Shown here: one piece after another, positions 16,078 to 62,360 of the stretch
Numbering within the stretch: position 1 is the first letter of the stretch
Layout: each line of letters opens with the position of its first letter
NCBI GenBank assembly: GCA_948567375.1
Contig: OX419760.1
Coordinates: 62,678,911 to 62,742,910, forward strand
Direction: 5' to 3'
From: Lunularia cruciata
Lineage: Eukaryota; Streptophyta; Marchantiopsida; Lunulariales; Lunulariaceae
DNA: 64,000 bases
Translations under genes and position numbers: made by a program
The notes under the pieces: model-generated
What the model saw: only the letters and a program-made list of their open reading frames with translations
The model's database searches: none
What the model was told of the DNA's origin: nothing

Positions 16078-16201
16078 TGTCGTGCATATATATATCGCTA
16101 CACAAGATACATCGTTGTCAACAACATACATCGTTGTCAACATCATACACTATAGAAGCACAACTCACACATAAGTCATACATAGACTCTAAAGTGCCAC
16201 A
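16078..16201 (-). repeat. Direct repeat outside gypsy 3' LTR
   Basis: Runs from tgtcgtgcatatata to ctaaagtgccaca and matches 16,654-16,758 on the inner side of the LTR (tgtcgtgcgtatata to ctaaagtgccaca). It includes a doubled acatcgttgtcaac phrase. It is part of the insertion, because the copia sequence stops exactly at its outer end. Confidence 0.9.
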
Positions 16202-16651
16202 ATAATCAGATTGCTTACCACTCTCAACTCAACTCAACTCAGATCAGTACTTGATCTGTCACTCTAAAAACTGCCAACAACTGGCCACTGATTACAATCA
16301 AGCAACACACACTCAAGCATAGAGAATCCAAGTGATGCTCGCTGGCCTCTGTCCACCACAGCTAGGAACTCGAAGGCTCAACATCAGAGAAGTGAGCTCT
16401 TTGGAGCTCACTTCGAAACTATACCCCCTAGACTCGAGCTAGCTCCGAAACCCTAACGGTCCCGCTGACGGCACACTTGACAGTGCGAACGATGCAAAGT
16501 GACGGTGGGCCCCACCGTGAAGTCAGCACCCCGAACACAAAATCTAACCATCGGAAAGTAGTCTTTGAGAAACTGTTGAAATAACTCTAACTACTATCAC
16601 TGGAACTCCAATGTTTGAGCATCTAGATGCGGCATTACAAATGGCGTGACA
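16202..16651 (-). repeat. Gypsy 3' LTR
   Basis: Closely matches the 5' LTR at 25,487-25,928. On the minus strand it begins TGTCACGCCATTTG. It is enclosed by two direct repeats (16,078-16,201 and 16,654-16,758). Confidence 0.9.
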
Positions 16652-16653
16652 CT

Positions 16654-16758
16654 TGTCGTGCGTATATACATCGCTACATAACATACATTGCTGTCAACAT
16701 CATACACTATAGAAGCACAACTCACACATAAGTCATACATAGAGTCTAAAGTGCCACA
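16654..16758 (-). repeat. Direct repeat inside gypsy 3' LTR
   Basis: Sister of 16,078-16,201. It lies between the end of the PHD-coding part and the 3' LTR. The same pair flanks the LTR of the second copy at 52.7-53.3 kb. Confidence 0.9.
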
Positions 16759-16928
16759 ATCGCCCTCCCTAGTTGGCGGTTAGGTCCCTCTAACTCCAGA
16801 TAGCCATCTACTCTAAGTATATGATATACCCTCTAATGGGCAAAGATCAGGAGGCCGGGTGCTATGGAGCCCCATTGTTAGTCGCCTGTCTGCAATCTAT
16901 ACCATATAAAGAATGAACTAGCTATAAG

Positions 16929-17261
16929 TCAAGTATATCTAGGACATAACCACTGTCTCTGAGGAACCACCATGAGAGGAGGAGTCATACATGCCATATG
17001 CCATCCTCTCAAATCGCTATCACACACTAACATAGTAGTAGCTCCACCAGAAGAGCCACATAACATACACCTCAAGCCCGCACGTACAAGTGCCAAGCTT
17101 GGGTCCATAGTACCATCAATGTTTGGAAGGTGGCATGGCGTACAATTGCGCACATGATCCTTCCAAACAACACCATCACGTCCTTCTAACACAAGGACTC
17201 CAGATGGCAAAACCTCGCACACTCTCAAGATACTACTGCCGTTAGAAACATCAAGTATCAT
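16929..17261 (-). pseudogene. Integrase C-terminal region with PHD finger
   Basis: The ORF begins in the SH3-like tail of the integrase (SSILRVCEVLPSGVLVLEGR and VWKDHVRNCTPCHLPNIDGT). At the very end is a PHD finger: C-x2-C (CMLC), 11 residues, C-D-S-D where the fourth ligand is Asp, then W-H-x2-C (GWHMAC), then WLCPRY, where the last ligand is Tyr. The copy at 53.5 kb keeps Cys at both places. PHD fingers bind histone H3 tails; most plant gypsy elements of this kind carry a chromodomain there or nothing. Here the family ends directly after the last zinc ligand. Confidence 0.88.
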
Positions 17262-17339
17262 TGATGCCGTCTGATGTAGATATACATAGTCGCCTGGATG
17301 AAATCGACGGATTGAGGGTCTACAACCTCCTCAAATGGT

Positions 17340-18260
17340 AGCATATCATAAAGTATCTCTATGTTGAGCAATTGCCAAGTTCTCAAAGGCCATCGGCATC
17401 ACTCTCCGAAAGATCTCTGCCCGCTGAGAACATGCGCTCATCCATACATCGAGGTCATCCAAGTCCAAAACTACAGTAGCATCTTGACGAATGGCTACAG
17501 GTAAATCTGGATCTCGTCCATCGAGTAGAAAGTATGGAGAGAAGGATGCTAAGGAGGCTTGCCGGCTGAACCAATAGCCCATGGCCAACCAAGGTAACTG
17601 GAGATCCCAATCTCCCAAGTGGCCTCTCTACAAACTATACTTTTACAATCCTCTCTTCACCGTCTGAACCACTCTCTCTGCTAAGCCATATGCCTCAGGG
17701 TGATCTCAGGATGTAGTACAATGATCAATCAAAGCCTTGTCACACAAGACCTGAAACTCCCCCAAGAACTCTGTACCCTGATCAGTCAAAACCTCAGCTG
17801 GTGCACCAAAATGACTAAGAACTCGATCCAGGAACGAGTAAGCTGTCCCTTTACTAGACTTGTCAAGAAGTGCCACCAAATCAATCCACTTGGAGAAGTG
17901 CTACACCATCACCAAAACATATCGATGATGTCTCACAGTCAATGGTAAAGGTCCAGCAAAGTCCAAACTCCAACGATAACCCAATCCCATGATAGGTAAT
18001 GGGTGTAACTGTGGTGTAGGAGCATTGAATGATGCTCTAACTCGGTCACAAACCACACATTTGGCAATAAACTACTGTACCTTGGTCTGCATACCGTGCC
18101 ACCAATAATGACTATGGAGTAAGCTATATGTCCGCTTTACTCCAAAATGTCCTAGCTCCTCATGAGCATGACAGACCACCTGTGGTCTCTGTGCTGGCAG
18201 TGGTACTTCTCGCACTCTACCATCCTCCCATACACGCAAAAGGTGTCTGCCCTCCAATCT
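17340..18260 (-). pseudogene. Gypsy integrase, broken
   Basis: The zinc-binding HHCC part is at 18,257-18,030 (CHAHEELGHFGVKRTY, then CVVCDRV). The catalytic core follows with SLDFAGPLPLT (about 17,965), LTDQGTEF (about 17,785) and GLAERVVQT (about 17,680), giving Asp, Asp and Glu in the expected DDE arrangement. The ORF 17,618-17,346 carries the downstream region (LPWLAMGYWFSRQASL...SPYFLLDGRDPDLP). Stops occur between these pieces. Integrase would join the cDNA to the genome. Confidence 0.88.
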
Positions 18261-18689
18261 AAACTACCTGGCTTGCTGAAGAACACAGTCTCTCTCCTTG
18301 GCCCCAACTGTGCCATCCACAACACCAGTGCGAAGATAGTCCATCACTAAGACATCATCATGAATGTCTCCCTGAACGGTACCAATATCTTCACTCTCTG
18401 GATCTATGACCTCAATAACTCCTCTTGTATGCGCTAAGAGAGATACCACCAAAGCCTCTGCAAATATACACAGAAAGACCGATGCATGCCAACCTGGTTC
18501 CATCTCCTCATCTGTCTCACCATGCCAACGTGCTCCGGTCTGATCTTGCTGGTTGGGACATGGGTTTCTACTCAACCCATCTGCATCATGGTTCACCACT
18601 CCAAGTCTGTGAACAACCGTGAAATCATACTCCTATAAAATCAGAGCCCATCGTGCAAGCTTCTCTGAAAGCTTGTCGGACTCCATCAA

Positions 18690-19990
18690 CCACTTCAGCT
18701 ACTGATGATCAGTGATGAGAGTGAAAGGGTTACCAAATAGATAACATCGGAAATGTGCTACTGCCCAAACTGATGCCAAGCACTCTCCCTCATATGAACT
18801 ATACTTTGCCTCCACTGAATTGTTGGAGCGACTAGCATAGGCCACCACAAACTCCTTCCCCTCATCATCATGTTGGGTGAGCACCTCTCCAAGCCCCAAC
18901 ATACTCCAATTAGTGTGAACCTAAAATAGTCATCCCTTGATCGGTCTCCTCAAAATAGGAGCAGATGTCAACCTCTCCTTGAGCTCTACAAAAGCTCTCT
19001 CCTGCTCATCTCCCCAACACCACTCCTGTATAAGCTTGGTCAGCTTTGTCAAGGCCTTGGCAATGACACTAAATCCTCTAACATAGCGGCAATAGAAGTT
19101 CACCAACCCAAGGAATGCTCGCACTCTGTTCACATCCGTAGGCCAAGGAATACGTGCAATAGCCTCCACCTTGGTCTGCTGGACACCAAGTCCTCCGGAG
19201 TAGATAGTGTGACCCAAACACTCAACCTGCTCGTAGAAGAACCTACACTTCCCAAGATGTAATTTGAGTCCATGAGATCTCAACCTCTCAAACACCTCCA
19301 ACAACTGTCTCTCATGCTCCTCTACAGTAGTGCTATAAACAAAAAATGTCATCAATATAGCACCGAGCAAAATCCAATCCAACTAGGATCCTATCCATGA
19401 CCCTCTGGAACAACAGGAGCGTTCTTCAACCCAAATGGTAAGAACCTCCACTGATAGAACACATCCTTGCCATGAGGATCAATAGCCCAGAATGCTATCG
19501 TGGACTTATTGTCCTCTCTGATCGGCAACTGATGATATCCCGCTTGAAGATCCAAAGTACTGAAGATCTTTGCATGCCTAATCGCATCAAAACTCTCCTC
19601 CGTTGTAGGCATAGCATATCGATCAACCCTGTTCTATCGGTTGATAGGACGGTAATCTCCACACATCTGCCTATTTGTATAGTTGCCATGCATATCCTTC
19701 TTGGCTGGCATCACTGTCGCTGATGCATACTCTCCATGTGAAATCTCCACCAAACCAGCCTCAAAAAGGTCACTACTCCGGCTCTGAATCAATGTCCTCT
19801 CCATCTCACTATATCTATAAGGACGTCGGAAAACTGGTGTGTCGCTAGTCAGCTCAATCCGTATACCAGGTCCCTTTAGAGCACCCAAATCCTTCATACT
19901 GAAGGCAAAACAACTCGTGTGACTCCTCAATAACCTCCAAACCCTCTGTCTTTCCTCTCCAGTAAGCTTGGGTCCAAGATCTGGCTCCCA
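18690..19990 (-). pseudogene. Gypsy reverse transcriptase and RNase H, broken
   Basis: RT starts near 19,930 with IRIELTSDTPVFRRPYRYS and MCGDYRPINR, then KIFSTLDLQAGYHQLPI (first Asp) and WRFLPFGLKNAP. The catalytic YIDD is encoded at about 19,360-19,340 but lies in another frame after a frameshift. The ORF 19,382-18,930 has GLKLHLGKCRFF, LGHTI and RVRAFLGLVNFYCRYVRGFS, the usual RT connection. RNase H is at 18,902-18,699 with VVAYASRSNNSVEAKYSSYEGECLA and FTLITDHQ. RT copies the RNA into DNA and RNase H removes the RNA strand. Confidence 0.9.
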
Positions 19991-20359
19991 AGTATTCCCT
20001 GTAACTGTAGTAGAAGTGGAAGACGTACTGACTGACTGCTACATTGGGCCCTTGGGAGCAATAGTGTCATGCTCCCGACCACTAGAGGTCCTAACCTTTG
20101 TGTGAAAAACTCCCTCCACTCTAGCTGCAAGCTCCACACGTCCTCTAGCTGCATCTTATGTGGACCAAGGGTGTAATGCAAGTAGCCCACGCTCACCTAG
20201 ATGGACTCCAAGTAGACCACTCTCCCTAGTAGCTACTAGATGTGTCCCAAGAATACCATGTCCACTCAGTCCATCGCCCCCAACATGTGCCTGAATTGTC
20301 TCGATAGGCACAGGGCTCACAAGTGTCTGAGTGGTGATGCCTATCAAGTGCATCCTACG

Positions 20360-21370
20360 CTGCTCTGCCAAGCCAAGGCTCACAATCCAAGTCAAACAGT
20401 TCATGTCCATAGCCTGACCTAACACTTGACGCCTGGATGCCTCTGACAATACTAGAACAGCGGTAATACCGGTGCAAAAACCCATCGCCCGCTCTCTCTC
20501 ATCAGCGTTGGGCTCCACCAATTGTTGTAACTGTGAGTCCCAAACAAGTCCAGGTCCTCCCTCTTGAAAAGCATGAGAGCTTGGGAAACTCATGAGTGTG
20601 GGAAATGTAGCTCTAGGTTGTACAACTAGGTTCACCACTGCCATAGGTGACCTATCAGCCACTACCACTGTCTAAGATTGACGCCCAACATCCAAGATAT
20701 CATCAACAAGGATGTGGTCAAGTCACTGAATCCCATCATAAGCGCGCTATAGAACCTCTCTGGATAAGAGGTTCGTCCACCAAATACGAAGATGATGAGC
20801 CCGTGATCCCACTCTAGCTACATCTAACAATACAGCAGGTCCCATCCAAGATGGACCTGATGTGTACTCGCCACCACTCTAGTGCGAGAATCACCCATCA
20901 AAGGGACGTTCTCCAAAAGGTAAGCTGGAGAAACGGATTGATGAACCTGGAGATGTCATAATATCCGTAACATCTCCCAAAACATACCAGAATGGGGATC
21001 CTGAAGACCTAATCCTCTACCAGCACGTGTATGTCCCTGACATGGCTATCCAAAAATCACCAAGTGAATAGGCCCATGTCTCTCTAGGTCATGCGCCCCC
21101 CAGTAAGGAAATGTCTCCTGGTAGGGCCTTCTGGTAACCTCTGACTGTTGACATTGGTAATAACTTCGGATACCGATAGGCCAAGTGTGCCACATGATGT
21201 AGAGAGACTCGCCTAGTTGTCTCATCTCTCTCTACATACAAGTACCTCTGTACTCGTATACCCACCTATAACACCACAGCTAGTTCGATGCTGATCCCAC
21301 CAAACAACTCCAATAGGCATATCCTCTCTATTGGATACTGCCAAGCAATGAGTGTGGTATCCAGAGGTGT
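20360..21370 (-). pseudogene. C5 DNA methyltransferase domain, DNMT3-like, in gypsy pol
   Basis: The motifs of a cytosine-5 DNA methyltransferase occur in order. Motif I is LLELFGGIS (about 21,316-21,293), the AdoMet site. Motif II is YVERDE (about 21,240). Motif III is LPGDISLLGG (about 21,125-21,096). Motif IV is PCQGHTRAGRGLGLQD (from 21,045), with the catalytic Cys. Motif VI is AYLLENVP (20,926-20,903), with the catalytic Glu of ENV. Motif VIII is LLDVARVGSRAHHLRIWW (20,842-20,785), close to the DNMT3 pattern DAxxVSxAHRxRYFW. Motifs IX-X are ERERAMGF and RRQVLGQAMDMNCLTW (20,510-20,390). The order is I to X, unlike permuted plant DRM enzymes. The enzyme would methylate cytosine in DNA. 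Broken here: a TAG after motif I, a frameshift before motif IV, Trp->TAG just before PCQ, and later stops. Confidence 0.9.
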
Positions 21371-22359
21371 CAAAGCAATTGCCTTTGGAGGCTCATCCTC
21401 ACACTCATCTCCTGATGGTACAAAGGCTCCACTCCAAGCCTGCTGCACCATCTGATCTGCATGATGCTGCAATGCCTCCTCTAAACTCCACAATGGAACA
21501 TCCAAGGTGGATGGAATAATCCCACTCGTACTCCAAAGCCGAGTGATCTCCTTTGGTACTGGAGTATCCTCTGCATGGGCGTTCTCCTCCAACAAGTCAC
21601 TAGGCCAAGTAATTGCACCATTGAAAGCTAAAATTGATGCTGCCATGGTCCCGGACTGTAGTGAGCCAAGATTGCCACTACTAAAGCGTACTAGTAGGCG
21701 ACATACCCGTCCCTCACCAGACTGCCAACCAGGTTTATAAGAGGCTGTCTCCTCCCAATAGTCAATGCTGAAACCCATGGGGTATAACACTGCTCCCCCA
21801 ACTAGCACATCATATGACTCAGCTAATGTCGCAATAGCTTTAGCTCTCACTACCGAGCTATCAGTCGGATGACCAGGCTTAACGTGGACAACAAGCTCTC
21901 CATGTATGATGTACTATGTCGAGCCACCACATAGAGATGTCTGGATCTGAAATGGACACCTCTCCACATCGGTCTTCCGTAACTCCAGACCGACAACTGC
22001 AGCCTTCCCCAACATAAGAGGCTGTGCACCAGAGTCTAACAAGACTCTCTGTCGTGTATAGCCCTTCTCTAAAGGTCCCACCAAATGGAAAATCCTCCTC
22101 TGGTTATCCAATGAATGGAGAACACCAGGTATCCAATAAATGGATAACACTAGGTGTGAACCGCACTCTCTCAAAGGCCGGTCTAGCTGGCAACTCCTCT
22201 AGTCTAGCCGCTACTGCCTGCCATAAACCACTGGTTGCTGAATGGATCCCATGCTCCTCAACCAAGTCAGCTCCACTACCAACCACCTCTGCTCTAGTAG
22301 TAGGAATTGCACCATCCCTACTCTCATACAACGTGGCAGCCAACCGGAATATTAGTGCT
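21371..22359 (-). pseudogene. Gypsy aspartic protease, broken
   Basis: The active-site LLDSGAQPLML lies at about 22,050-22,018, with upstream LVGPLEKGYTRQRV. A stop at 21,917 (GGST*) splits it; the rest (21,850 on) has ESYDVLVGGAVLYPMGF, the region after the flap, then SIDYWEETASYKPGWQ. The aspartic protease cuts the polyprotein. After about 21,650 comes a ~90-residue linker rich in acidic residues (ECEDEPPKAIALTPLDTT) that runs in the same frame into the methyltransferase. Confidence 0.85.
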
Positions 22360-24303
22360 AGGTCAACTCCCAAAAACAAAGGACGCCGCATAATCAGTTG
22401 AGCCGCCCCCCAACATCATGCTAGACTTAGTCTGTGTAGTAGCAGGTGGCTGACTAGCAGATAGTCCATCATGTACTCCATCACCACCTACCACACCTAC
22501 ACTGGGACGTCTAAGAACCATGGATGTCATCTGTAATGCCTCACATAGTGTGAAAGATTGGGGAAGTCTGACATGTCTCCCAACCTCTCCTCTTTGTAGG
22601 TCCAACTCCATTGATGCTCCTCTAGGCTCTGGAGCACGTACTGCACTCCTAGTCATTGCTACAGATGCATCCACCTGTGTTGCTCTACACATGAAGTCCA
22701 AAGCATCTCTATCACCAGCATATGAGGTGGAAGCCTCAGCACCCAAATCTGATCTCCTTTGAGCAATAGCCATACTAGCCAATCTCTGCTCCAATTGCTC
22801 AATCCGAGTAGCCATAACTGTGTCAGAAGTAAGGGTAGGTACTGTACCCCTACTAGGTGTAGATCCTCTACCACCACCTCTACCACCTCGTCCTCCATGG
22901 ACTGGAGCTCCTCTACTACCTGCCATAGCAGCCCTACCACTCCGTAACTCCGGGTGTAGGTCAAAACATCGGTCACTAGTGTGACCAAATCTGTGGCAGT
23001 GCTGGTTGTGATGCACCCGAGGTATCAGGTCCACTGCCTTGAGTACACTCTCTCCGATGATGAGGTCCACCACAAGTCCAACAAGCAACACCACCACTCA
23101 CTGGCTGTTGCTGACCCAAAAATGAGGGTAAGGGTCTAACTCCACTAGGCCCTCCACTCGCTCCATAGGATCTGGGCTGTCCACCCTGTCCTCGAAAACC
23201 TACTGGGCATGGTGCACTCTGCTGCACTCTAGAAGAAGTCACAACCGTGGATGAGGTCTCCCTACCAAATCCAGATGTCACCACTCTCTCCTCCACCATG
23301 TTGAGCTCAATATGCTCAGCCAAACCAAAGTGGGCGAAGTAGCCTGCAACAATGTAGCATCACAAACTCTATGTCGCAACTCCCTGTCCAGTATCCCATA
23401 TCAAAATTGGACTGCCTGGGCCTCAGTAACTCCTTGAGTGAAACTGATCAGCCGCCTCATGCGAGTGTATGCCTTGCATAGGCTCTCTCCAGCATTCCGC
23501 TGGAACTCCTACAAGCTCCTCAGCTTGTCAGTCCGTACTCCCTGGTAGTTCTGCCTCAAACATAGGAAGAACTCCACCATGGGGTTAAACCCCGGTACCA
23601 CACTACCTCCTACAGCGGTACCTCCACTCGTAGTAGCACTATCTCCAGCTAGTGCACCTCCACTAGCTCTACCCACACTACTTGAGCTAGAACTCATAGG
23701 TACAGCCGATCTACTCCTGGCCACCAAGCCTGAAATGATGGAGACATAGTGTGGAGACCAATATTGTCTCCATAACTCAATCTCTTCCAAATGAGCTCTC
23801 CTGAACTCATGGTAGTCATCCATCGGCAGACCCTCCAAGTGTTGAAACAACCCCTTCCATGCCATGAAGGGTGTGAACAAAGTTGGGTTCCACATCTGTT
23901 GTAGATCACACCAACTATCAAACTCCTGGATGAAGTCATCAAACTCAATGGTACCCACTGTACCAGAGTAACGTCTAGGGCCTTTGGAGACCCCATAAAT
24001 CTCATCCATGTCCCACAACAACGGTGTGGACATACCAAGTGCACTCTCAACTGAATCAACTCATGTGTTGAACTCCAACTTAGAGTCAATCTCCTCCCTC
24101 ATTGGGACTTGAGATACAGGCTGATACCGAGCACCACTTCGAGTAAACCCACTACGTACTACATGGCTAACTCCTCTAGAATCTTCAAAGAACTCTGTCG
24201 TGACAAAGTAACCCCAACAGCAAACCCGAACCACCAACTGCAATCGCAAGTGCCCCACCAAGTGCCAACACCACCACGTGCCAACACCAACTAAGCACCA
24301 CAC
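22360..24303 (-). pseudogene. Gypsy Gag with zinc knuckles, broken
   Basis: Gag is the RNA-packaging capsid/nucleocapsid protein. The main ORF (24,033-23,509) has SGTVGTIEFDDFIQEFDSWC and FMAWKGLFQHLEGLP, a layout usual for gypsy Gag. After a stop it continues in 23,323-22,976 with CWTCGGPHHRREC (CX2CX4HX4C-like) and in 23,097-22,363 with HCHRFGHTSDRC, a second knuckle, then an RGG-rich stretch (GGRGGRGGGRG) that could bind RNA. The end has RIEQLEQRLASMA, a possible short coiled coil. Stops and frame changes near 23,505 and 23,050 break it. Confidence 0.85.
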
Positions 24304-25486
24304 ACTAATGTAACTCTGACCGAGATAACTACACTATGGGAAAGGGCAACCTGTAACCTGCCATCATAACACACACTCTCACGGTCTGCAGGTCATCACT
24401 TCCTACCTCACGGAAGAGAAACAAAGGTAGTTTCACTAGTCATCACTCTAGCCTCACCACCAAGAGCACACCAGAGCACCAACGCTCAAAAGTTAGGGCA
24501 CCTCACACAAACATGGTACACAAACAGGAAGCAAAGAATGGAGGGGGTCCAATCACAAGAAATCTAAACGAAAACCCTCCATCTCATAACACAACACGGG
24601 ACTGACTCTGCCACCATTTGGCATTTGACATAAGAGAAGTTCATATCTGAGTCCTAAACTACCAGGATCACCAAGAATGTGATCAAACTGCCTCTCCTAG
24701 CCAAAGCTACATGTGTATAGATAACAATGGCACAGTCACTATGACAACAAGTGAGGGTGGACCAGTTGGCTAGGGCACCAGTCTAGGAACAAGAGATCTA
24801 GGGGTCAAACCCTATTGCGCACAATCTAGCAGGAAAGATAGATTTTGCCAACCAATGACCAAGATCTACTCTAAACTAGCTAGTCTCACGCCAGCAAGCT
24901 GGCTTGTTGGCCCTTCTAGGCCTTCGTAGCCTCTCATAGCCCACAGCCCTATGCCTCGAAGCCTCTAAATGCCCAAATGAGGCCTTTCTTGTTGCCACTT
25001 CGAACCTCCTCCAAAATTAGCAAAACTTCTCCAAATCTGCGAAAGTCCTCCAAACTAGCAAAAGTCCTCCAAATCTGGCCAAAATCTGACGTAAACCCTA
25101 AAGTTGGCTGTCCGCCGAATCCCCCGCTAACTTTCCACTCGAGCCAAATTGACAATTTTCCAAATCACAAATTCATGAGAATAGCTTTCCAACTCCACTT
25201 TCAATTTGACTTTCTGAGCCTAACTCGTAGCAAATTGGTCATGCATTCACCTCCTGAGTTCAAAATCACAACCACTGCTCGAAATTTGCTCCTTCTTTGC
25301 TCAAAATTTGGTCAGCACTTCCGCACACCGTCCACCTAACTGCCAAATCTACATCAATTGAACGAGCTTTTGCACACTAGGGAAACATTGAACTTGAATC
25401 GAGCTACCAATGATCCACCGAGCTTGGAGATACCACCAACACTCAAAGTTCTTGCACCCAATTTCCCCCTGACTTCACTTCTCTGA
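24304..25486 (-). other. Gypsy 5' leader
   Basis: Lies between the 5' LTR and Gag. It contains short tandem phrases (cctccaaat/aactagcaaaagt) at about 25,008-25,085. A plus-strand ORF at 24,977-25,339 is antisense to the leader and consists of these Ser/Lys-rich repeats; I treat it as a shadow. Confidence 0.6.
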
Positions 25487-25928
25487 TGTAATCAGATTGC
25501 TTACCACTCTCAACTCAACTCAACTCAGATCAATACTTGATCTGTCACTCTATAAACTGCCAACAACTGAGCACTGATTACAGTCAAGCCACACCCACTC
25601 AAGTATAGAGAATCCAGGTGACGCTCGCCGGCCTCTGTCCACCATAGCCAAGAACTCGAAGGCTCAACATCAGAGAAGTGAGCTCTCCGGAGCTCACTTT
25701 GAAACTATACCCCCTGGACTTGAGCTAGCTCTGAAACCCTAATGGTCCCGCTGACGGCACACTCGACGGTGCAAAGTGACGGTGGGCCCCACCATGAAGT
25801 CAATACCCCAAACACAAAATCTAACCGTCGGAAAGTAGTCTTTGAGAAACTGTTGAAATAACTCTAACTACTATCACTGGAACTCCAATGTCTGAGCATC
25901 TAGATGCGGCACTACAAATGGTGGGACA
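25487..25928 (-). repeat. Gypsy 5' LTR
   Basis: Closely matches 16,202-16,651 (ccgctgacggcacac, gtgacggtgggccccacc, aacatcagagaagtgagctc). On the minus strand it begins TGTCCCACCATTTG and ends CTGATTACA. It contains (CAACT)3 near its inner end. No convincing tRNA primer site follows directly. Confidence 0.9.
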
Positions 25929-26079
25929 GAGAGTGAGTTGAATATTGCTGAGTGTAATCATGAGTGTCTACTTTGGTGAGACTAGGAAAGCTAAGTGCTA
26001 AGATGTCTGATACATAAGAAATCAGAATGACTGAGGATAGACCATCTACTTCAAAAACTAGGAAGAAAGGTTTACATCA
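25929..26079 (+). repeat. Copia 5' LTR, second part
   Basis: Resumes at gagagtgagttgaatattgctgag and ends ggtttacatca, matching 30,560-30,774. The 3' LTR has one extra ~65-bp repeat of gtgagttg...gagactaga. Right after it, ggttataggcac (26,080) is a weak candidate for the primer-binding site. Confidence 0.9.
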
Positions 26080-26101: not shown

Positions 26102-27475
26102 TTGGGGTTGATAGGAGAACTTAGAGAAATAGAGAAACTAGGAAACACTAATTACAAAGCCTGGGCTTTGGATGTGAAGTGTATCCTAGACAGTTATGAC
26201 TGTTTGGACTTGGCATTAGAAGTTCATGATATAGATGAACTTGAGTCCAACAAGGAGTGGAGAATCAATCATTCTACTATTAGGAGGTTCCTGCTAAGGG
26301 CTATGTAAGAGCCAGTCAGAGACCTAATAGAAACTTATGCTTGGAGTTGGGAGATCTGGCGCAAACTCAAGAATTTTTATTCTATTGAGAGGTTGGAAAG
26401 TTCCAGTAGGATCTGGGATGGGATGTGGAACACTAAACTTGCAGATGGTGAAGACTTTACTTTGCACTTGTCAAAGTTACATAAGGTCTTCAAGAGTGTC
26501 AAGGAAGATGGGTGTCCCCTTACAAAGAAATATGAGATCAATCATCTCTTGAAGACTCTCCGTCCAAGCTACCAACCTATCAAAGTAGCTCCAAAAGTTC
26601 TAACTGTTGAAGTTGTCACATGGGATTATGTGATAAATAGATTATTGGTGTTTAGCAGAGACAAAGAAGACCTAGAGATGAAGTTCAATGATTTGGGAGA
26701 TTATGCTTTGTTCAATGCATCTTCTCAGTCAAGGAGAGTGCCAGATAGAAGAGTGAGCAAACCAGAGCAATCTAGAGTGAGTAAATCTGGTAAAGGGGTT
26801 AGTAGTGTTGTTAACATGATATGTTATTTCTATCATGAGAAAGGTCATGTTGCACCTATATGTCCCAAGAGAGGAGAAAGGAGAGAACGAGAGTTGGAGA
26901 AGGTAGGCAAGGGACCTCAACCAATAAGAGGTAAAAAATTTGCAAGTTCAACTTACAACACAGAGGAGTGCAATGAGATAAAGAGCGATAAGGAGGAGTA
27001 CTCAGTAGAAGAGCTAGATTGTGGAATGTTGGCAGAATTGCAGTTGTCCACAAATGGTTCTAGATGGTTCTTGGATTCTAGAGCCACCTCTCATATCTAT
27101 TACCAGAAGGAGCCGTTCTCAACTCTTCAACCTCTGAAGATTCCCAAGAGTGTTCGTTGTGGACTTGGGATTCTAAATCCAATGTTAGGAACTGGCAAAG
27201 TTCCTATTGCCTTCATGACAAGATCTAACACAAGCTATTGTAAGAGCTATTTGGAAGATGTGATCTATGTTCCAGATTACACCAAGAACTTGATATCAGT
27301 ACATCGCCTCATGGAGCATGGAGTGGATGTTCTGTTTGAAAGCAATAGAAATCAATGCACTTTGAAGAAAGGAGAGCTGGTCCTTGGATATGGCATTGCC
27401 AGAGGGAAGCTGTTCAAGTTGATGGAAGCTGATTGTTCTGATTCTGCATTGGTAGCAGAAAACAAAAATGATATC
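26102..27475 (+). pseudogene. Copia Gag and protease, broken
   Basis: The first ORF (26,102-26,308) is Gag-like (KLGNTNYKAWALDVK). The next (26,393-27,529) continues Gag, then a zinc knuckle at about 26,818-26,865 reading CYFYHEKGHVAPIC, where the second Cys of CX2CX4HX4C is Tyr. The protease site near 27,070 reads LDSRATSH in place of the usual LDSGATxH, so a Gly is lost. Gag would package the RNA and protease would cut the polyprotein. A stop at about 26,307 and a frame change at about 26,390 break the gene. Confidence 0.85.
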
Positions 27476-28334
27476 CATCTGTGGCATTTGAGGTTAGAGC
27501 ACTTGTCAATGCGAAACCTATATGCTTAGAGAAGGTAGTGGATGGGTTGAAACTGGATCCCAAAGGAAAACTCAAGTTTTGCATTGGGTGTGCAAAAGGT
27601 AAGGCACACAAGGCTCCTATCCCCAAGAAATCTTCATTTAGAGCTTCTGGTCTTCTAGATGTCATACATTCTGATGTATGGGGATACATGACTGAGAAGT
27701 CATTGAGTGGAGTAGCCTACTATATTTCCTTTGTGGATGATTACAGTAGAAAGAGCTTTATCTATCTCATGAAAAGCAAGGATGAAGTGCGGCAAAAATT
27801 CCAAAAGTTGTAGCCATGACTGAGTTGCAGACTGGGAGGAAAGTCAAGAGATTGAGAACAGATGGAGGCAGAGAGTACAAGAATGAAGAATTCCTCTCTT
27901 TTCTATCAAAGAAAGGAATCCTTCTTGACTGTACAGCCAAAGACAGTCCTGCACAGAATGGAGTTGCAAAAAGGTTGAATAGGACACTGGTGGACAAAGA
28001 ATTGGCCATGCTCCAACATGCCAAGCTGGAGAGAAAGTTTTGGGGTGCTGCAATTAGCATTGCAAATTACCTTAGAAATATCAGTGGTACCACAGCATTG
28101 CAAGGAAGAACTCTTGAAGAATGTTGGAGTGGTAAGAAACCTAATCTTTCAACTTTGAAGGTTTTTGGATGTCCTGCCTATGTTCATATTCCCAAGGAGC
28201 AAAGGAGGAAGTTCCCAAAGAAAGCTGAGAGAATGCTCTTTGTAGGATATGAAGAGGGACTGAAAGGATATCTTCTGTACAATCCTAAGTCTAACAGATC
28301 ATCAGAAGTAGAGATGTACTCTTTGATGAATTGA
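27476..28334 (+). pseudogene. Copia integrase, broken, catalytic Glu lost
   Basis: Starts with the HHCC zinc region (LWHLRLEHLSM, then CIGCAKGK at about 27,580). The core has HSDVWGY (about 27,670) and RTDGGREY (about 27,855), which supply the two Asp of the DDE triad. The third position reads NGVAKRLNRT (about 27,960), where the family has Glu in AERxNRT. Stops at 27,529 and 27,813 interrupt the frame. The GKKP...FGCPAYVHIP stretch downstream is typical of copia integrases. Integration activity is not expected. Confidence 0.85.
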
Positions 28335-52708: not shown

Positions 52709-54624
52709 TGTTGTGCATATATACATTGCTACATAACATACACTATAGAAGCACAACTCACACATAAGTCATACATGAACTCTAAAGTGCCACACTAATC
52801 ATTTTATTTTTCCACTCACATCATACTCAAATCAGATCTATACACAATCTCTCACTCAACATTTGCACACAATCGGGCATTGATTATAGTTAAACCACAC
52901 CAACTCTAACTTAAGAGACTCCAGGTAATGCCCGGCTTTTGTCCACCGTAGCCAGGAATTCAAAGGCTCAACATTAGAGAAGTGAGCTCTCTAGAGCTAC
53001 ATTGAAAATTATGTCCCTTGCTTGACCTAGGTCTTGAGCCCTAATGGCACTATTGATGGCACATCCAATGGTGCAAAAAATGTAAATGACAATACCATAT
53101 GATCAATAGCCCTAACATAAAATCCAACCACCAACAAATAGTCCATGAGTAATTACCAAAATAACTATGACTAACAATATTTGAGCAAATTGGCTTTTGA
53201 ACTACAAATATTGTGATAGTTGTCATGCATATATACATTGTTATCATTATAGAAGCACAACTTACACATAAGTGATACATGAACTTTAAAGTACCACATT
53301 TGATTCCCTAGTTAGAGGTTAGGTCCCTCTAACTCCATATAGCCATCTACTCTAAGTATGTGATATGCCCTATGGTGGGCAAAGATCAAGAGGCCGAGTG
53401 CTATCAAGCTTTATTGTTAGTTACCTGTCTACAATCTATATTACATAAAGGGTGAACTAGCTATAGGTCAAGTACATCTAGGACATAACCACTATCCTTG
53501 AGGAACCATCATGAGGGGAGGAGTCAAACATGCTATATGCCATTCTCTCAAACAATTATCACACACCAACATAGTAGTAGCTTCACTAGAAGAGCTACAT
53601 AACATACACCGCAAGCCTTCATGTACAAATGCCAAGCTTAGGTCTATAGTGCCATCAATGTTTAAGAGGAGGCATGGCACACAATTGTGCACATAATCCT
53701 TTCAAACGACACCATCATGTCCTTCAAACACAAGGACTCCAAAAGGCAAAACCTCATGCACTCTCAAGATAGTGCGGCCTATAGTAGCATCAAGTGTTGC
53801 TGAGGTAGTCTACTATAGATACACATAATCACATGGATGAAATCAACGAATTGAGGGTCTATAACCTTCTCCTCAAATAGTAGCATAGCTTAAGGTATCC
53901 CTATGTTGAGCAATTGCTAAGTTCTCAAAGGCCATTGGCCACTCTCCAAAAGATCTCTATCCATTGAGAAACATGTGCACCCATATGTCTAGATCATCTA
54001 ACTCCAAAACTACAATAATACCATAACAAATGGTTGTAGGTAAATCTAAATCTTGTCCATAAAGTAGAAAGTAAGGAGAGAAGGATGCTAAGAAGGCTTG
54101 CCGACTAAACCGATAGCCCATGGCCAACCAAGGTAATTAGAGATCCCAATCTCCCATGTGGTCTCTCTACAAACCAGACTTACACAATCTTCTCTTCACC
54201 ATTTGAACCACTCTATCTCTACTAAGCCAATTGCCTCTGGGTGATCTCAAGAGAAAGTATGATGATCAATCAAGGCCTACTCAAACAAGACATGAAACTC
54301 TCCCAAAAACTCTATACCTTGATCAATCAAAACTTGAGCTGGTGCATCAAAATGACAAGAACCCAATCTAAGAACAAGTAAGCAATCTCTTCATTGAACT
54401 TGTCAAGACGTGCAACCAACTCAATCCACTTGGAGAAATTCTCTATTGTAACTAAAACATATTGATAATGTCTAATAGTCAATGGTAAAGGTCCAACAAA
54501 GTCCAAACTCAATGGTAATCCAATCTCATGATAGATAATGAGTGTAATTGTGGTATAGGAGCATTAAATGATGCTCTAACTTGGTCACAAATCACACATA
54601 TGGCAAAAGATTGTTGTACATTAG
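52709..54624 (-). mobile_element. Truncated second copy of PHD-bearing gypsy
   Basis: Matches 16,078 to about 18,080 in order: outer repeat (52,709-52,795), LTR (about 52,796-53,217), inner repeat (about 53,219-53,298), PHD-coding part, integrase C-terminal region and integrase core (SLDFVGPLPLTIRHYQYVLV in 54,512-54,327). It stops in the integrase zinc region at 54,624, where the next LTR begins, so the methyltransferase part is missing. It is more AT-rich and more diverged than the first copy. Confidence 0.88.
53480..53692 (-). pseudogene. PHD finger with all zinc ligands, second gypsy copy
   Basis: Reads CMLC, 11 residues, CDNCLREWHIAC, LTPPLMMVPQG, a TAG, then WLCPRCT and the terminal stop. 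The ligands follow C4HC3: C-x2-C, C-x2-C, H-x2-C, C-x2-C with Trp two before the last pair. This matches canonical PHD fingers, which bind histone H3 tails. The internal TAG (CAG->TAG beside Trp) breaks the frame. It restores the two ligands that the 17-kb copy has lost, so the family had a complete finger. Confidence 0.9.
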
Positions 54625-55084
54625 TGTAACAATATGTAGTTTACCAATGAGTTAGTCAAGGCTAAGGAAGTAGCAAATAGGCCAAATTAGCATAAAATAT
54701 TCTAGAAGTATCTAGGAAGCTACTTGGTACCTTCTAAGTATTAAGTAATGTGCATGCCAAGTGGCAACTTCTAGAAGGAAGCTTTTTGGGAAGCTTCCCA
54801 ACTTTCTTAGTTTGCACTCCAAGTAGATAGCTTCTAGAAACTTTTAACTAGCTTAGCTTGCATGCCAAGTAGGTGACTTCTAGAAGGAAGCTTCTTGAGA
54901 AACTTCTTGGATGACTTTGCTTGCACTCCAAGATAGTGGCTTAAGGAAGCTTCTCAAGAGCCTTATATGCTCCTTATAAATACCAAAGTAAAAGCTTATG
55001 CTAAGCATTTGGAATTTCTTTCATTCAAGTGTCCTAATGTGGTCTCCTATTCTCCTATTTTCTCCTTGATCTTTGTCTTTTACA
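54625..55084 (+). repeat. LTR of a third gypsy element, HSE-rich
   Basis: Starts TGTAACAATATG and ends ctttttaca-like (gtcttttaca). ttggtatatgagtagg follows directly (55,085 on) and resembles the initiator-Met primer site TGGTATCAGAGC. TTCTAGAA occurs at 54,700, 54,769, 54,832 and 54,879, the last continuing as ggaagcttcttgagaa. A TATA-like ttataaata is at about 54,973. Confidence 0.8.
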
Positions 55085-57878: not shown

Positions 57879-58778
57879 TCAAACCATAACAACTTCTCTT
57901 GCCTCTTCCAACTCCATGAGTTGATCCTTCCTTGACTTCTTTGCATCACCTCCTTGTGCTTTCTTCAATCTCCTATGAATGCTTTGGAAGGTCTGAAGAT
58001 CAAAGTGAATAGATAAGGTAGACTCAATACCATATACCAATTGAAATGGAGAATATCTAGTGGAAGTCTTCATGGTTGTCCTATACTTCCACAAAACTGC
58101 ATGAATCCTCTTGTCCCAATGATGTTTAGCTCCCTCTATTTCTACATCTTTGGCCAACATCATGCACAAGGTCTGATTGGTTCTCTCTGCCAAGCTATTG
58201 GAATTTGGCTTATAGGATGTAGTTACTCTATGTGTGATACATAAATGTTGTAGCATGGATGTAGTGATGCTTCTTGTAAACTCTCCTCCTCTATTAGAAA
58301 CCAACTCCAAAGTGCATCCAAACCTAGTTATAATGTGTTCATAAAGAAATCTACCCACTTCATCTTCATTCTTGTCCCTCAATGGTCTAACCTCAACCCA
58401 CTTGGTAAGGTAGTCAATAACTACTCCAATGTACCAACTGTTCCTTGGGGTTCTACTAAGAGGACCTGCAAAATCAATTCCTCACTTCTCAAAAGGTCCA
58501 AGCAATAGAATTGATCTAAGTGGTGGAGTGGATGTAGACTTTCTAGCAAAAACTTGACAAACATGACAAGTTTTGCAATAATCAAGAAAATCCTTGAAAA
58601 TCCCTCTCCAATGGTAACCTACGTCTAGAATCTTGAAAGTAGTCACCTTTCCTGCAAAGTGTCCTCCATACACCAAACCTTCATGAAACTCCTTTATGAG
58701 TAGGATAGACTCTTCCTTTCCCATTGCTCTTTGAAGTAGACCATATGCTCCTTGGTGAAAAAGAATATCTTCCACCAT
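57879..58778 (-). pseudogene. Integrase of fourth gypsy element
   Basis: The ORF 58,778-58,482 has the zinc part (HEGLVYGGHFAGKVT, then CKTCHVCQ). After a stop, GIDFAGPLSRTPRN gives the first Asp. The ORF 58,382-57,879 has LVSNRGGEF, where the second Asp reads Asn, and NSLAERTNQTL with the Glu, then YRTTMKTSTRYSPFQLVYG, typical of gypsy integrases. Two stops and the lost Asp make it inactive. Confidence 0.88.
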
Positions 58779-60611
58779 CTTGTAAGGTCTAGATCTTGCT
58801 GCAAGGCCTTCCTCTCCTTAGCATGTATCCCTTTTGGATAGTTACCTCTTGTCACAAAATCCACAATCTCCTCATACTCCATTGGAACCTCTTGAGGGAT
58901 TGAGATTTTCATGAGCTCCTCCTCTGAGAAGGAATCATCCATTGACTCATCTCCATCATGATCATAGGCCCTAGATAACAAATCTGCATATTTCTTCTCT
59001 CGCCTATCCTCAATGGTGTAGTTATACTCAGACAAGAGTATCATCTACCTTGCTAGTCCTCCTTCCACATTAGGCTTGTTGAAGATGTACTTCAAAGCCT
59101 TGTGATCCATGACAATTGTGGCTTTTGCTCCAATCAAGTAGTGTCTAAACTTCTTGAGACCAAATATCATTGCCAACCCTTCTCACTCTGTGATAGAGTA
59201 GTCCTTTTCTGCTGAAACCATCTGCCTACTAGCATAAGCTATTGGATGATCATGCCCATCCTGGTCTAATTGACTAAGAGTGCATCCTATAGCTACATTA
59301 GAAGCATCAGTGTAGAGGATGAAGAGCTTACTCCAATTAGGTTTAGCAAGAATTGGAGCTACAACAAGGGATTGCTTGAGCTCCTCAAAAGCTTTGAGAG
59401 CCTCCTCATCTTCCAAAATCACCATGTAATCTACACCCTTCTTCATGTAGATTGCCAATGCATAAGCCTTGTTGGAAAATGAGAAGATGAACATCCTATA
59501 GTACCCAACCATCCCCAAGAATTCTCTTAACTCTATCAAACTTGAAGGGAATGGAAGGTCTGAGATTTTCTTCACCCTCTCGAAATCAACTACTTTTCCA
59601 TCCTTGGAGATGATGTGCCCCAAAAGTAGACCTTCTTCACATCCAAAAATGCACTTCTTTGGATTGAGTCATAAAAAAGACTTCATGGATGACTTTTGTG
59701 TGACAAATGACATTGATGACAAATTTTCCAATGAAAGATTTGAATACTTTATTTATGAACCGTTGGAATGTAGCTGGAGCATTGCAAAGCCCAAAAGGCA
59801 TGACCTTGAAAGTGTAAGTTCTCCAAGGTGTGGTGAATGTGGTGATTTGTTGATGCTCTGGTGCAATCTTGATCTGGTTATCTCCACTATAACCATCTCC
59901 AAAACTATACCTCTCATGACCTACAACCTCCTCCAAGATCTCATTAATGAATGGTAATGGGTAGTAGTCCTTCTTTGTAACAACATTGAGCTTCTTGTAA
60001 TCCACACATATCCAAAGCTTGCCATTCATTTTCTTCACAATCACAATTGGAGACATCCATTTTGAATACTCCACCTCAAAGATAAATCTAGCCTCCTTGA
60101 GCTTATCAATCTCCTCCTTGACAACTAAAGCTATTGGCGGGCTAATGTGACATTGCTTTTGGCGGACTGGTCTTGCATGTGACTCCACCTCAATCTTGTG
60201 CTCCTCCAAGATGACTTCCTTTAGATCCTTGTAATTGAAAGCAAACACATGGATGAACTTGCAAAAAATCTCCTCAAATCTCACCTTCTCCTCCTTGGTA
60301 ACATTTGGACCATACTTGAAGGTAGATAACCTCCTTTCTATCTCCTCAAGTGTCAATGGTGATTTATGTGGGTCCTTCAAAACTTTTGGCTTAGGTGAAA
60401 AATCCATAGCATATAAGGGATACACATGTGAATAAGATTCAGATTCATCCTCCTCTGTGGAAGCCTCCTCCTTCATGCTTGTGTTCACACCTAAAGCTCC
60501 TTCTTCTGAATGTGATTCCCAATAATCAAAAGATGGTGTATCTGAATGTGAAGTGTTGGTGGTGGTAGTCACAAGAACTATGACTCTATGGTTTGATGGC
60601 CCAATCCTCAA
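58779..60611 (-). pseudogene. RT and RNase H of fourth gypsy element
   Basis: RT: CHISPPIALVVKEEIDKLKE, MSPIVIVKKMNGKLWICVDY, YSFGDGYSGDNQIKIAP (one change from the usual LDGYSGYNQI), FKVMPFGLCNAPATFQR (60,611-59,637). The YxDD region near 59,690 is not readable. RNase H and connection: LREFLGMVGYYRMFI and FILYTDASNVAIGCTLSQ (59,623-59,183), then MILLSEYNYTIEDRREKKYADLLSR (59,044 on), the usual link to integrase. Confidence 0.88.
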
Positions 60612-61362
60612 GTACCCTTTGTGCTGTTCTCAACCATGGGCTCCAAAGAAGCAAATCATAGCTTGAATCCTTCAAGACTTGGAAAGTTATGAGATTTTGA
60701 ATGCCTATAATTGAAACTACCACCTTATCTATCACCCTTACTGGTTGAACTTGTTGCTTAGTTGCCATGCTCACCACAAATGTTGAAGGTCTAGAGGGTA
60801 TCATATCCAACTTACTCATCAACCTTTCTGACATGGCATTCATTGCTAATCCTCCACCAACCAATGCATCCTTGATGTTGTGACCATTCACTCTCACATC
60901 AATCTTGGAGGTATATTCACAAGCCTCCCATGGTGTTGGTTTAGCATCCACCACCCCCATTGATATTGGAACTTGTGCCTTCTTCTTCCTCTTGCTCCTT
61001 GTAGAACTCAAACCACCTCTAAGCTCCTTTCTCAAAGTAGGATTCAAAGCAATCAATTGGCCAATTGTGATATTAGCCCTGTGGCTACTAACATCCTCCA
61101 AGACATTGTAGTTCCATTGTTGCTTTGAGATTAAAAAGTCTTCCTTCTCCAACTTCTTCCTTGGAGTCTTTGTTGTTGATGGTGTTGAAGTGCTTTTGCA
61201 AGTGCTCCTAGTAGGCATAGGAGTATCTTGGCTAGGAGTAAATCCTTGAGAAGAGTGCACATCCTTTGCAAAACAAGCTCTCTTCTTCTCTTGTGCAAAA
61301 AGATCCAAATGAAGACCTTTGGACTTTGAGCATTCCTCCTTCTCATACTTGCTCTCAACCAC
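60586..61362 (-). pseudogene. Protease region of fourth gypsy element
   Basis: VNGHNIKDALVGGGLAMNAM is the active-site region, where the usual Asp-Gly-Gly reads Val-Gly-Gly-Gly, so the catalytic Asp is lost. VVSMATKQQVQPVRVIDKVV and the flap-side sequence SYDLLLWSPWLRTAQ follow. The upstream part is a Lys/Ser-rich linker. It overlaps the end of the Gag ORF in another frame. Confidence 0.8.
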
Positions 61363-62360
61363 ATCATGGATGCTATCCCCTTTACCTTGTTTGGATTAGA
61401 AGCCACTTGGGTTTGACTTCCTCTCTCTTTCCCTCTATTGGCTCCCTCATAACCCCTTCCTCCCTGGTAAGTAGAATATGGGTAATTCCTTTGGATATGG
61501 CCTCTTCCTCCACAACCAAAACAATTTTTCTTATTGAAATTTTTGGTTGGTTGGCCTCCTCTATATGGAAAATTTCCATAACTCCTAGGCCCTCTCCCCA
61601 CATTCTGATCTACCTCTCTCTTCTCCCATAGTTGCACTACATTGATCTTGAGATCTGCAAGTTGTTCAATGATAGTTTGAAGTGGATCCTTTGGTAGGAG
61701 TGCAAGAATTGGAGCGACTACTACTTGTGGTGCAACTCTTGTCACCAAAGTATTAGAAGTTCCACCATACTTGTAACATTGAGGAGGATGCACAATCTCC
61801 TTCACCACCAAATCACTCATCCACTTCCAAAGTCTCCTCCATACGAATCACAATCTTGATAGCTTCAACCTTGGAGAAGGTTTCTCTTGCTTCTAATTTG
61901 TGGTCTCAATCCTCCCACAAAGTTCTTGGTGAGCTTGGCCCATATGCCAATCATAGTAATCTCCACATCATCCACACCTTTCCTCAACATTGTGCAAAAT
62001 CTAGACTCTAACTTTTCCACTCTTTCCACATAGACTCTCACTTTCTCTCTATCTTGTTGCTTGAGAGAGGTTCCCTCACTCATCAATCTCTCATAACTCT
62101 CATTTGGAAGAAAGTTCTCAACGAGTGCTGAAGTCAAACTCTCCCAAGACACTTCTTGCCCATCTCTCCTCTCTCACTTTTGGTATTCTGACTCATACCA
62201 TGTATATACTGCATCCTCAAAGAAATTTGGTAATAATGAGGCCCACTCATCCTTTCTCCTCTCATTTTTTCCTATGCAAGCTCTCTTGAAGCCTATCACA
62301 AAAGCCTCCACATCTTCTCTATCCTTGCCAAAGAAAGTTGGAAGTTTCCTCATTTTAACC
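61131..62360 (-). pseudogene. Gag of fourth gypsy element
   Basis: Capsid region: LPTFFGKDREDVEAFVIGFK (about 62,350), WESLTSALVENFLPNESYER, VRVYVERVEKLESRF (62,152-61,865). After frame changes, the ORF 61,820-61,131 has a zinc knuckle CFGCGGRGHIQRNYP, where the last Cys of CX2CX4HX4C reads Tyr. Inactive. Confidence 0.85.

What the first reader, a model, noticed from the sequence alone, without database searches (positions are those of the whole stretch)
20360..21370. Cytosine-5 DNA methyltransferase built into a Ty3/gypsy pol region
Motifs I, II, III, IV (PCQG), VI (ENV), VIII, IX and X are found in order on the minus strand, between the protease and the RT, in the linker frame that follows the protease. 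The DNMT3-like order and the motif VIII phrase set it apart from permuted plant DRM enzymes. Retrotransposon-borne C5 methyltransferases have been reported in dinoflagellates and charophyte algae (de Mendoza and colleagues, 2018, from memory). If the host is neither, this extends the range; if it is a charophyte, this is a member of that set. An element that methylates its own cDNA or new insertions would be hiding from, or cooperating with, host silencing.
Basis: partly seen in the sequence, partly recalled or inferred. Interest (0 to 1): 0.95.

Follow-up and report, generated by a model that had tools for sequence, protein, structure and literature searches.

The report
Liverwort retrotransposon carrying DNA methyltransferase
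A jumping gene in a plant genome that is probably a liverwort carries its own DNA-methylating enzyme, apparently made together with its capsid protein, which extends a phenomenon so far described in algae to land plants and raises the question of why a parasite would carry a silencing enzyme.

Summary
The window carries a decayed 9.85-kb Ty3/gypsy-type element (16078-25928, minus strand). A non-permuted, DNMT3-like C5 methyltransferase lies between its protease and reverse transcriptase. In this copy the domain is broken (2 frameshifts, 6 stops), but the family is abundant: 19 of 20 copies chosen by their reverse transcriptase keep the whole domain, 7 of 20 without stop or frameshift. Three further features emerged: (1) split direct repeats, A-coding-B-A-B, with TGTC...GACA ends and 4-bp target duplications; (2) a conserved leaky-stop motif, UAG-CAR-YYA, between methyltransferase and reverse transcriptase, so the enzyme belongs to the Gag-protease frame; (3) a PHD finger ending the integrase. 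Relatives occur in Marchantia, Riccia, Calypogeia and Sphagnum; more distant ones in green algae carry the methyltransferase between RNase H and integrase. The methyltransferase is the best conserved part of the first frame in 8 of 8 comparisons; its catalytic cysteine is kept in 159 of 161 full-length domains. The closest published element is KnitGypsy-Dnmt3 of the charophyte Klebsormidium nitens. I judge this a new variant of that known kind. Enzyme activity, readthrough and the enzyme's purpose remain untested.

The parts
16078..25928 (-). whole element, 9851 bp, ends TGTC...GACA
   Evidence: flank comparison of copies, terminal letters read
25929..25932 (-). 4-bp target duplication, 5' side (TCTC)
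   Evidence: also TAGC in L009 and CATA in L011
16074..16077 (-). 4-bp target duplication, 3' side (TCTC)
25489..25928 (-). repeat A1 (left end)
   Evidence: self-comparison, 91.1% to A2
16654..16759 (-). repeat B1 (106 bp)
   Evidence: D5
16203..16651 (-). repeat A2
16078..16202 (-). repeat B2 (right end; 125 bp in this copy)
22408..24288 (-). Gag with two CCHC knuckles (frameshifted in this copy)
   Evidence: tblastn with the 1428-aa frame of L009; knuckles read from the translation
21691..22123 (-). aspartic protease (LDSGAQ)
   Evidence: position computed; no Pfam match in this family's frame, a weak Asp_protease_2 below cut-off in relative L041
20336..21334 (-). DNMT3-like C5 methyltransferase domain, broken here (2 frameshifts, 6 stops)
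20033..20041 (-). leaky-stop motif TAG-CAG-TCA (type I UAG-CAR-YYA)
   Evidence: same motif in L041
16932..19996 (-). RT-RNase H-integrase frame (broken here)
   Evidence: Pfam domains in sister copies
16932..17078 (-). PHD finger at the C-terminus of the integrase (two metal-ligand cysteines changed in this copy)
   Evidence: PF00628 6.4e-7 in the window, 6.3e-11 in L010; letters compared

Best explanation
This is a decayed copy of a large family of Ty3/gypsy-type retrotransposons with split direct repeats. The main translation product is Gag-protease-methyltransferase; reading through a UAG-CAR-YYA stop in a minority of passes would add RT-RNase H-integrase-PHD. Shown here: the order of parts, the conserved stop motif, the repeats, the integrase-type ends with target duplications, the conservation of catalytic residues, and the long coexistence of methyltransferase and Pol. 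Inferred: ribosomes read through the stop; the enzyme is therefore packaged at near-Gag amounts in the particle; there, or after nuclear entry, it methylates the element's double-stranded cDNA, most likely at CG, before or during insertion; the PHD finger ties the integrase to histone H3 tails of a particular state. New copies would then arrive already methylated in matching chromatin, which may protect the cDNA from being treated as foreign or may limit damage to the host so that the element persists.
For: Non-permuted domain closest to DNMT3A/3B among solved structures (2.2e-10, against 5e-4 for M.HaeIII and 0.012 for DRM2). The domain is the best conserved part of the first frame in 8 of 8 relatives compared: 74% to Marchantia P0002, against 68% Gag, 62% protease, 46% linker, 26% tail; 52% to P0015, against 24% Gag, 43% protease, 13% linker, 8% tail. 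Motif IV Cys in 159 of 161, motif VI Glu in 161 of 161, motif VIII Arg in 158 of 161 full-length domains. UAG-CAR-YYA in 20 of 20 copies plus the window, in 19 of 20 RT-chosen copies (the twentieth keeps the TAG and has changed the next codon), and as TAG-CAA-TCA in the divergent L041; 0 of 98 in-frame decay stops carry CARYYA and only 2 of 2214 TAG triplets of the window do. The motif is the type I readthrough signal of plant viruses (PMC5382211, passages). DNMT and Pol distances among 37 elements correlate (r 0.82, 0 of 5000 permutations as high). PHD in the window, L010 and L041.
Against: No activity was measured here. In the 2018 paper the KnitGypsy domain gave no methylation in yeast, which its authors call inconclusive, while SymbioDIRS domains were active. 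dN/dS among young copies does not set the DNMT apart: 0.37, against 0.44 and 0.51 in its flanking stretches and 0.22-0.56 elsewhere; 0.45 in RT-chosen copies. Most sampled copies are broken: 13 of 20 RT-chosen domains have a stop or frameshift or are truncated. Some annotated gene models of relatives (Marchantia P0005, P0008, P0010, P0014 and Sphagnum P0022) run from DNMT into RT without a stop; whether by predicted introns was not checked. Readthrough, packaging and PHD ligand are untested. Deamination is high at CHG as well as CG, which points to host silencing enzymes acting on the copies and says nothing about the element's own enzyme.
Confidence: 0.55

Rival explanations
1. The enzyme acts on nuclear DNA in trans rather than on the element's own cDNA: it reinforces silencing of relatives or nearby chromatin and so limits copy number, or competes with host methyltransferases.
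For: Encoded in the Gag-protease frame, so potentially abundant. Copies carry C-to-T decay at CG 46/266 and CHG 63/493 against CHH 66/2040 in the window, so the copies do become methylated.
Against: CHG decay is nearly as strong as CG decay, which fits host chromomethylase-type silencing better than a DNMT3-type CG enzyme (inference). No localisation data.
Confidence: 0.2
2. The enzyme methylates RNA (the genomic RNA or the tRNA primer) or serves as a nucleic-acid binding part of the particle.
For: de Mendoza et al. raise RNA methylation for the LINE type (discussion). Stoichiometry with Gag would suit a packaging role (inference).
Against: Nearest solved relatives are DNMT3A/3B; the first tRNA (DNMT2-type) enzyme has E 0.033. 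Catalytic Cys and Glu are kept, which a binding-only role would not need.
Confidence: 0.12
3. A passenger: a host gene captured by chance and carried along without function, or an assembly or nesting artefact.
For: The window copy itself is broken, and 13 of 20 RT-chosen copies are broken in the domain.
Against: Present in 19 of 20 RT-chosen copies, in other liverworts, Sphagnum and green algae, and more conserved than Gag and protease over deep divergence.
Confidence: 0.03

Closest known systems
KnitGypsy-Dnmt3 of Klebsormidium nitens (de Mendoza et al. 2018, PMC5890265)
   Same: Gypsy domain composition, non-rearranged DNMT3-like domain, repeats arranged as in DIRS elements, copies methylated in the host (sections 9-11 and passages read; here methylation is inferred from C-to-T decay).
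   Different: Host is a charophyte alga; the DNMT is described as inside the Pol ORF; the main text has no occurrence of 'PHD' and the passages and sections read name no leaky stop. Figures and supplements were not seen. No Klebsormidium sequence could be compared here.
SymbioDIRS-Dnmt3 and SymbioLINE-Dnmt of Symbiodinium (same paper)
   Same: Retrotransposons carrying cytosine methyltransferases; A-coding-B-A-B repeats in SymbioDIRS; two domain orders coexist.
   Different: DIRS type uses a tyrosine recombinase and LINE type an endonuclease; this element has a DDE integrase (rve) and 4-bp target duplications.
Chromoviruses (chromodomain Ty3/gypsy elements)
   Same: Histone-reader-type module at the integrase C-terminus (recalled for chromoviruses).
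   Different: The module is a PHD finger; no chromodomain was found in L010 or L041. One distant relative, P0114, is listed with both a chromodomain and a PHD finger.
Cellular plant DNMT3 and DRM
   Same: Same catalytic motifs as DNMT3.
   Different: About 35% identity over 54 residues to the host's own DNMT3-like exon L001; DRM-like locus L002 is permuted.

Membership tests
KnitGypsy-Dnmt3-type element | non-rearranged DNMT3-like domain | tested here: met
   linear order against profile, DNMT3A best among PDB chains
KnitGypsy-Dnmt3-type element | Gypsy RT-RNase H-rve integrase composition | tested here: met
KnitGypsy-Dnmt3-type element | DIRS-like repeat order A-coding-B-A-B | tested here: met
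   two B copies in 19 of 21 examined (20 loci plus window); L017 and L025 showed one B only
KnitGypsy-Dnmt3-type element | DNMT inside the Pol ORF | tested here: inconclusive
   here in frame with Gag-protease, separated from RT by a conserved UAG-CAR-YYA
KnitGypsy-Dnmt3-type element | common descent with the K. nitens sequences | not testable with these tools
   no row named Klebsormidium among the hits listed (41; 113; 120 listed of 275)
DNMT3 family | motifs I, IV (PCQ), VI (ENV), VIII, IX, X in linear order | tested here: met
DNMT3 family | tree position within cellular DNMT3 | tested here: inconclusive
   only two partial cellular rows as outgroup
DRM (rearranged) methyltransferases | permuted motif order | tested here: not met
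   host locus L002 is the permuted control
DIRS order | tyrosine recombinase, no target duplication (recalled) | tested here: not met
   rve integrase and no recombinase match; 4-bp duplications in 3 of 3 copies tested
Chromovirus | chromodomain at integrase C-terminus | tested here: not met
   Pfam shows PHD and no chromodomain in L010 and L041

The most novel reading that the evidence does not exclude
One capture of a DNMT3-like gene founded an ancient green-lineage clade of split-repeat Ty3 elements, perhaps older than the split of chlorophyte and streptophyte algae and including the K. nitens elements. The enzyme has since moved within the polyprotein (between RNase H and integrase in algae, between protease and the leaky stop in bryophytes). 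The element carries both a histone H3 reader (PHD on the integrase) and a DNA methylation writer made at capsid amounts, so that each new copy is installed already marked. This would be self-imposed epigenetic placement as a lasting transposon strategy.
Probability: 0.3. Interest if true: 0.85.

Novelty: new variant of a known kind. Interest (0 to 1): 0.62.

Why it matters
Silencing by cytosine methylation is a main host weapon against transposons, yet this family has kept a methyltransferase better conserved than its own capsid and protease. Relatives are encoded by several proteins each in liverworts and Sphagnum, including the model Marchantia polymorpha (14 of 41 rows), for which the gene list quoted in PMC5784723 (passage) names five methyltransferases of the MET, CMT and DRM types. 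That makes the question of what a transposon gains from methylating DNA testable in a genetically tractable land plant. The leaky stop gives a concrete, easily tested prediction about the enzyme's dose, and the PHD finger one about targeting.

Tried and rejected
Rejected readings. Chance motif matches: rejected by the ordered profile matches and by sister copies with long open frames. A nested host gene or assembly chimera: rejected because the domain is present in all 20 copies fetched around a DNMT match and chosen for long frames and in 19 of 20 chosen by RT. A DRM-type enzyme: rejected on motif order. Ordinary LTRs: the pair A1/A2 first looked like LTRs, but A2 is flanked by B1 and B2.

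Weak or negative results. Per-copy dN/dS does not separate the DNMT from its neighbours and was not used as the main evidence. A scan of viral contigs gave 12 loci matching short stretches only (26-42% identity), not pursued. Rfam found nothing in the window at gathering thresholds. A PBS was looked for by eye and not identified just after A1. In the DNMT tree the Gag-protease-DNMT group is one side of a branch with low support (41), one B-type row (P0038) lies next to it, and two C rows join it at 86; in the Pol tree the B type is one clade (98) but the three C rows fall in two places. The copies were chosen for long open frames, so their stop counts are biased low. Genome-wide copy counts by pattern did not complete. 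One PDB search used wrong coordinates and hit nothing relevant (repeated correctly); the L012 stretch was cut short and so missed the PHD finger.

Full report
What is there. The window lies in an unnamed 565,766,749-base assembly. On the minus strand, 16078-25928, is a 9851-base retrotransposon copy with ends TGTC...GACA and a 4-bp target duplication TCTC. Comparison with a sister copy's 1428-residue frame and a 1037-residue Pol frame shows nearly the whole coding region present but broken by frame changes and stops. Its A1/A2 repeats are 91.1% alike. A1/A2 pairs longer than 280 bp were found in 16 of 20 fetched copies and range from 91.7% to 100%; L009 gave only a short pair and L016, L017 and L025 none. 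This copy is therefore among the older ones.

The methyltransferase. Window pieces match a profile of homologous domains in the linear order of DNMT3, between the protease and RT. In a sister copy Pfam DNA_methylase exceeds its cut-off. Among solved structures the nearest are DNMT3A and DNMT3B. Host locus L002 gives the permuted order with the same profile, as expected of a DRM, and a separate cellular DNMT3-like exon (L001) is about 35% identical over 54 residues. The element's enzyme is thus neither of these.

The family. A Pfam search of the genome scored 123 of 2161 candidates; by the profile segment matched, about 116 of the 123 are of the element type by my count of the table. Of the eight loci cut out, L005-L008 are element copies and L001-L004 are not. 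A search with the 1428-residue protein scored 33 of 24461 candidates, all nearly full length at 97% identity or better, 7 of 33 without stops, one of these being the query copy itself. By stop and frameshift counts 7 of 20 domains are open over their whole length, 6 of them also without alignment gaps; 13 of 20 have a stop or frameshift or are truncated.

Leaky stop. In all 20 long-frame copies and the window, a TAG followed by CAG-YYA stands between methyltransferase and RT. In L011, L012, L013, L016, L017 and L028 long open frames in the same register meet at this one codon. In the RT-chosen set 19 of 20 have the motif; in the remaining one the TAG stands and the next codon has become TAG as well. 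A divergent relative, L041 (DNMT 53%, Pol 68% by alignment), has two open frames separated by TAG-CAA-TCA. In-frame decay stops never carry the motif (0 of 98) and only 2 of 2214 TAG triplets in the window do. UAG-CARYYA is the type I readthrough signal of tobamoviruses and others (PMC5382211, passages). Marchantia models P0002, P0003, P0006 and P0007 end 67-69 residues after the domain, as a stop there would predict, but P0005, P0008, P0010, P0014 and Sphagnum P0022 run on into RT; whether their models splice out a stop was not checked. That the stop is read through is inferred.

Repeats. Around the 3' end the order is B1-A2-B2, with A1 alone at the 5' end: A-coding-B-A-B. Two B copies are visible in 19 of 21 examined; L017 and L025 show one and were not followed. 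The B1-A2 junction carries two extra bases between GACA and TGTC that are absent from the outer ends. Target duplications of 4 bp are seen in 3 of 3 copies tested (window, L009, L011). The 2018 paper says of KnitGypsy-Dnmt3 that its repeats have the structure of a DIRS element with Gypsy domain composition.

PHD finger. The integrase ends in a PHD finger (window 6.4e-7; L010 6.3e-11; L041 4.3e-10). Its nearest solved relatives include CHD4, KMT2D, PHF12, KDM5B, PHF21A, AIRE and UHRF1 (80 matches, 60 shown). From recall several of these bind H3 tails unmodified at K4 or R2; the ligand here is unknown. In the window copy two metal-ligand cysteines are changed.

Distribution and evolution. Three protein searches gave 41, 113 and 275 proteins (120 of the 275 listed). 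Named sources include Marchantia polymorpha and M. paleacea, Riccia sorocarpa and Calypogeia fissa (liverworts), Sphagnum fallax, S. troendelagicum and S. tenellum, and the chlorophytes Monoraphidium neglectum and Cymbomonas tetramitiformis (lineages of three of these). Many rows are unnamed metagenome proteins. No row named Klebsormidium or a vascular plant was seen in the listed rows. Among 141 proteins (the first two searches plus the query), Gag-protease-DNMT layouts are those of bryophytes and some unnamed rows, while RT-RNase H-DNMT-integrase-CTD-PHD is the commonest layout (68 of 141). In a Pol tree of 43 rows the latter type is one clade (SH-aLRT 98) and the bryophyte type another (100); three rows with DNMT before RT fall in two places. 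In a DNMT tree of 59 rows the picture is similar with weaker support: the Gag-protease-DNMT group has 41. DNMT and Pol distances among 37 elements correlate at r 0.82, with 0 of 5000 permutations as high. The simplest reading is long coexistence and one relocation; two insertions of related enzymes, and horizontal transfer, are not excluded.

Selection. Catalytic residues are kept: motif IV Cys 159 of 161, motif VI Glu 161 of 161 full-length domains among the 260 proteins held. In the first frame the methyltransferase is the best conserved of the six segments in 8 of 8 relatives; two of these lack Gag and L041 holds only part of it in the frame used. dN/dS among young copies is uninformative: DNMT 0.37, neighbouring stretches 0.44 and 0.51, RT 0.31, RNase H 0.22, integrase core 0.56; DNMT 0.45 in RT-chosen copies. 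Private substitutions are mostly C-to-T or G-to-A (window 175 of 254; pooled 582 of 773), concentrated at CG and CHG: the copies have been methylated, by whom is not shown.

Host. The nearest named relatives are liverworts. The assembly total is close to the 565.6 Mbp printed for Lunularia cruciata in PMC12885004 (passage), whose genome is described as enlarged by Ty3/Gypsy bursts (PMC9985172, abstract and passages, which gives an assembly of 580 Mb).

Literature. Searches and 123 of the held open library, of which I saw listings, abstract starts and passages of some papers, showed no report of methyltransferase-bearing retrotransposons in land plants, of the PHD finger in these elements, or of the leaky stop. 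PMC12344493 (passages) repeats streptophytes and dinoflagellates. Subscription papers, preprints and supplements are not covered, so the absence is provisional.

Verdict. The finding is real. It belongs with the known phenomenon of DNMT-carrying retrotransposons and most resembles KnitGypsy-Dnmt3, but it extends the range to land plants and adds the leaky-stop layout, the PHD finger and a second domain order in algae. I score it as a new variant of a known kind.

Noticed in passing
window 53471-54625, minus: Fragment of integrase-CTD-PHD about 64-72% identical per piece to this family's Pol, a second, more diverged subfamily; no methyltransferase match at E 1e-3 next to it.
   Followed up: partly
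window 26309-28334, plus: Ty1/copia-type gag and pol remains beside the element (Pol_BBD and copia gag in 26309-27526).
   Followed up: no
window 57879-61847, minus: Another Ty3/gypsy-type element, RT and rve matches, without a methyltransferase match.
   Followed up: no
L001 (G000:C7:31988337-31991654): Cellular DNMT3-like exon(s) in the host, although the Marchantia polymorpha list quoted in PMC5784723 names only MET, CMT and DRM types.
   Followed up: partly
L041 (CADCWO010000201.1): A 9.3-kb contig binned as a Synechococcales cyanobacterium is a eukaryote-type DNMT-PHD retrotransposon, and gag pieces lie at both contig ends as if circular: probably a mis-binned element. Similar MAG labels: P0111 (Minisyncoccia), P0148 (Obscuribacterales).
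   Followed up: partly
B1-A2 junction of the copies, e.g. window 16646-16661: Near-palindromic GACA-NN-TGTC with two bases not found at the outer ends, like an unprocessed end-to-end junction; how an integrase element replicates with split repeats is unexplained.
   Followed up: no
161 methyltransferase domains; P0114: The proline of motif IV (PCQ) is glutamate (ECQ) in 54 of 161 domains. Relative P0114 is listed with both a chromodomain and a PHD finger.
   Followed up: no
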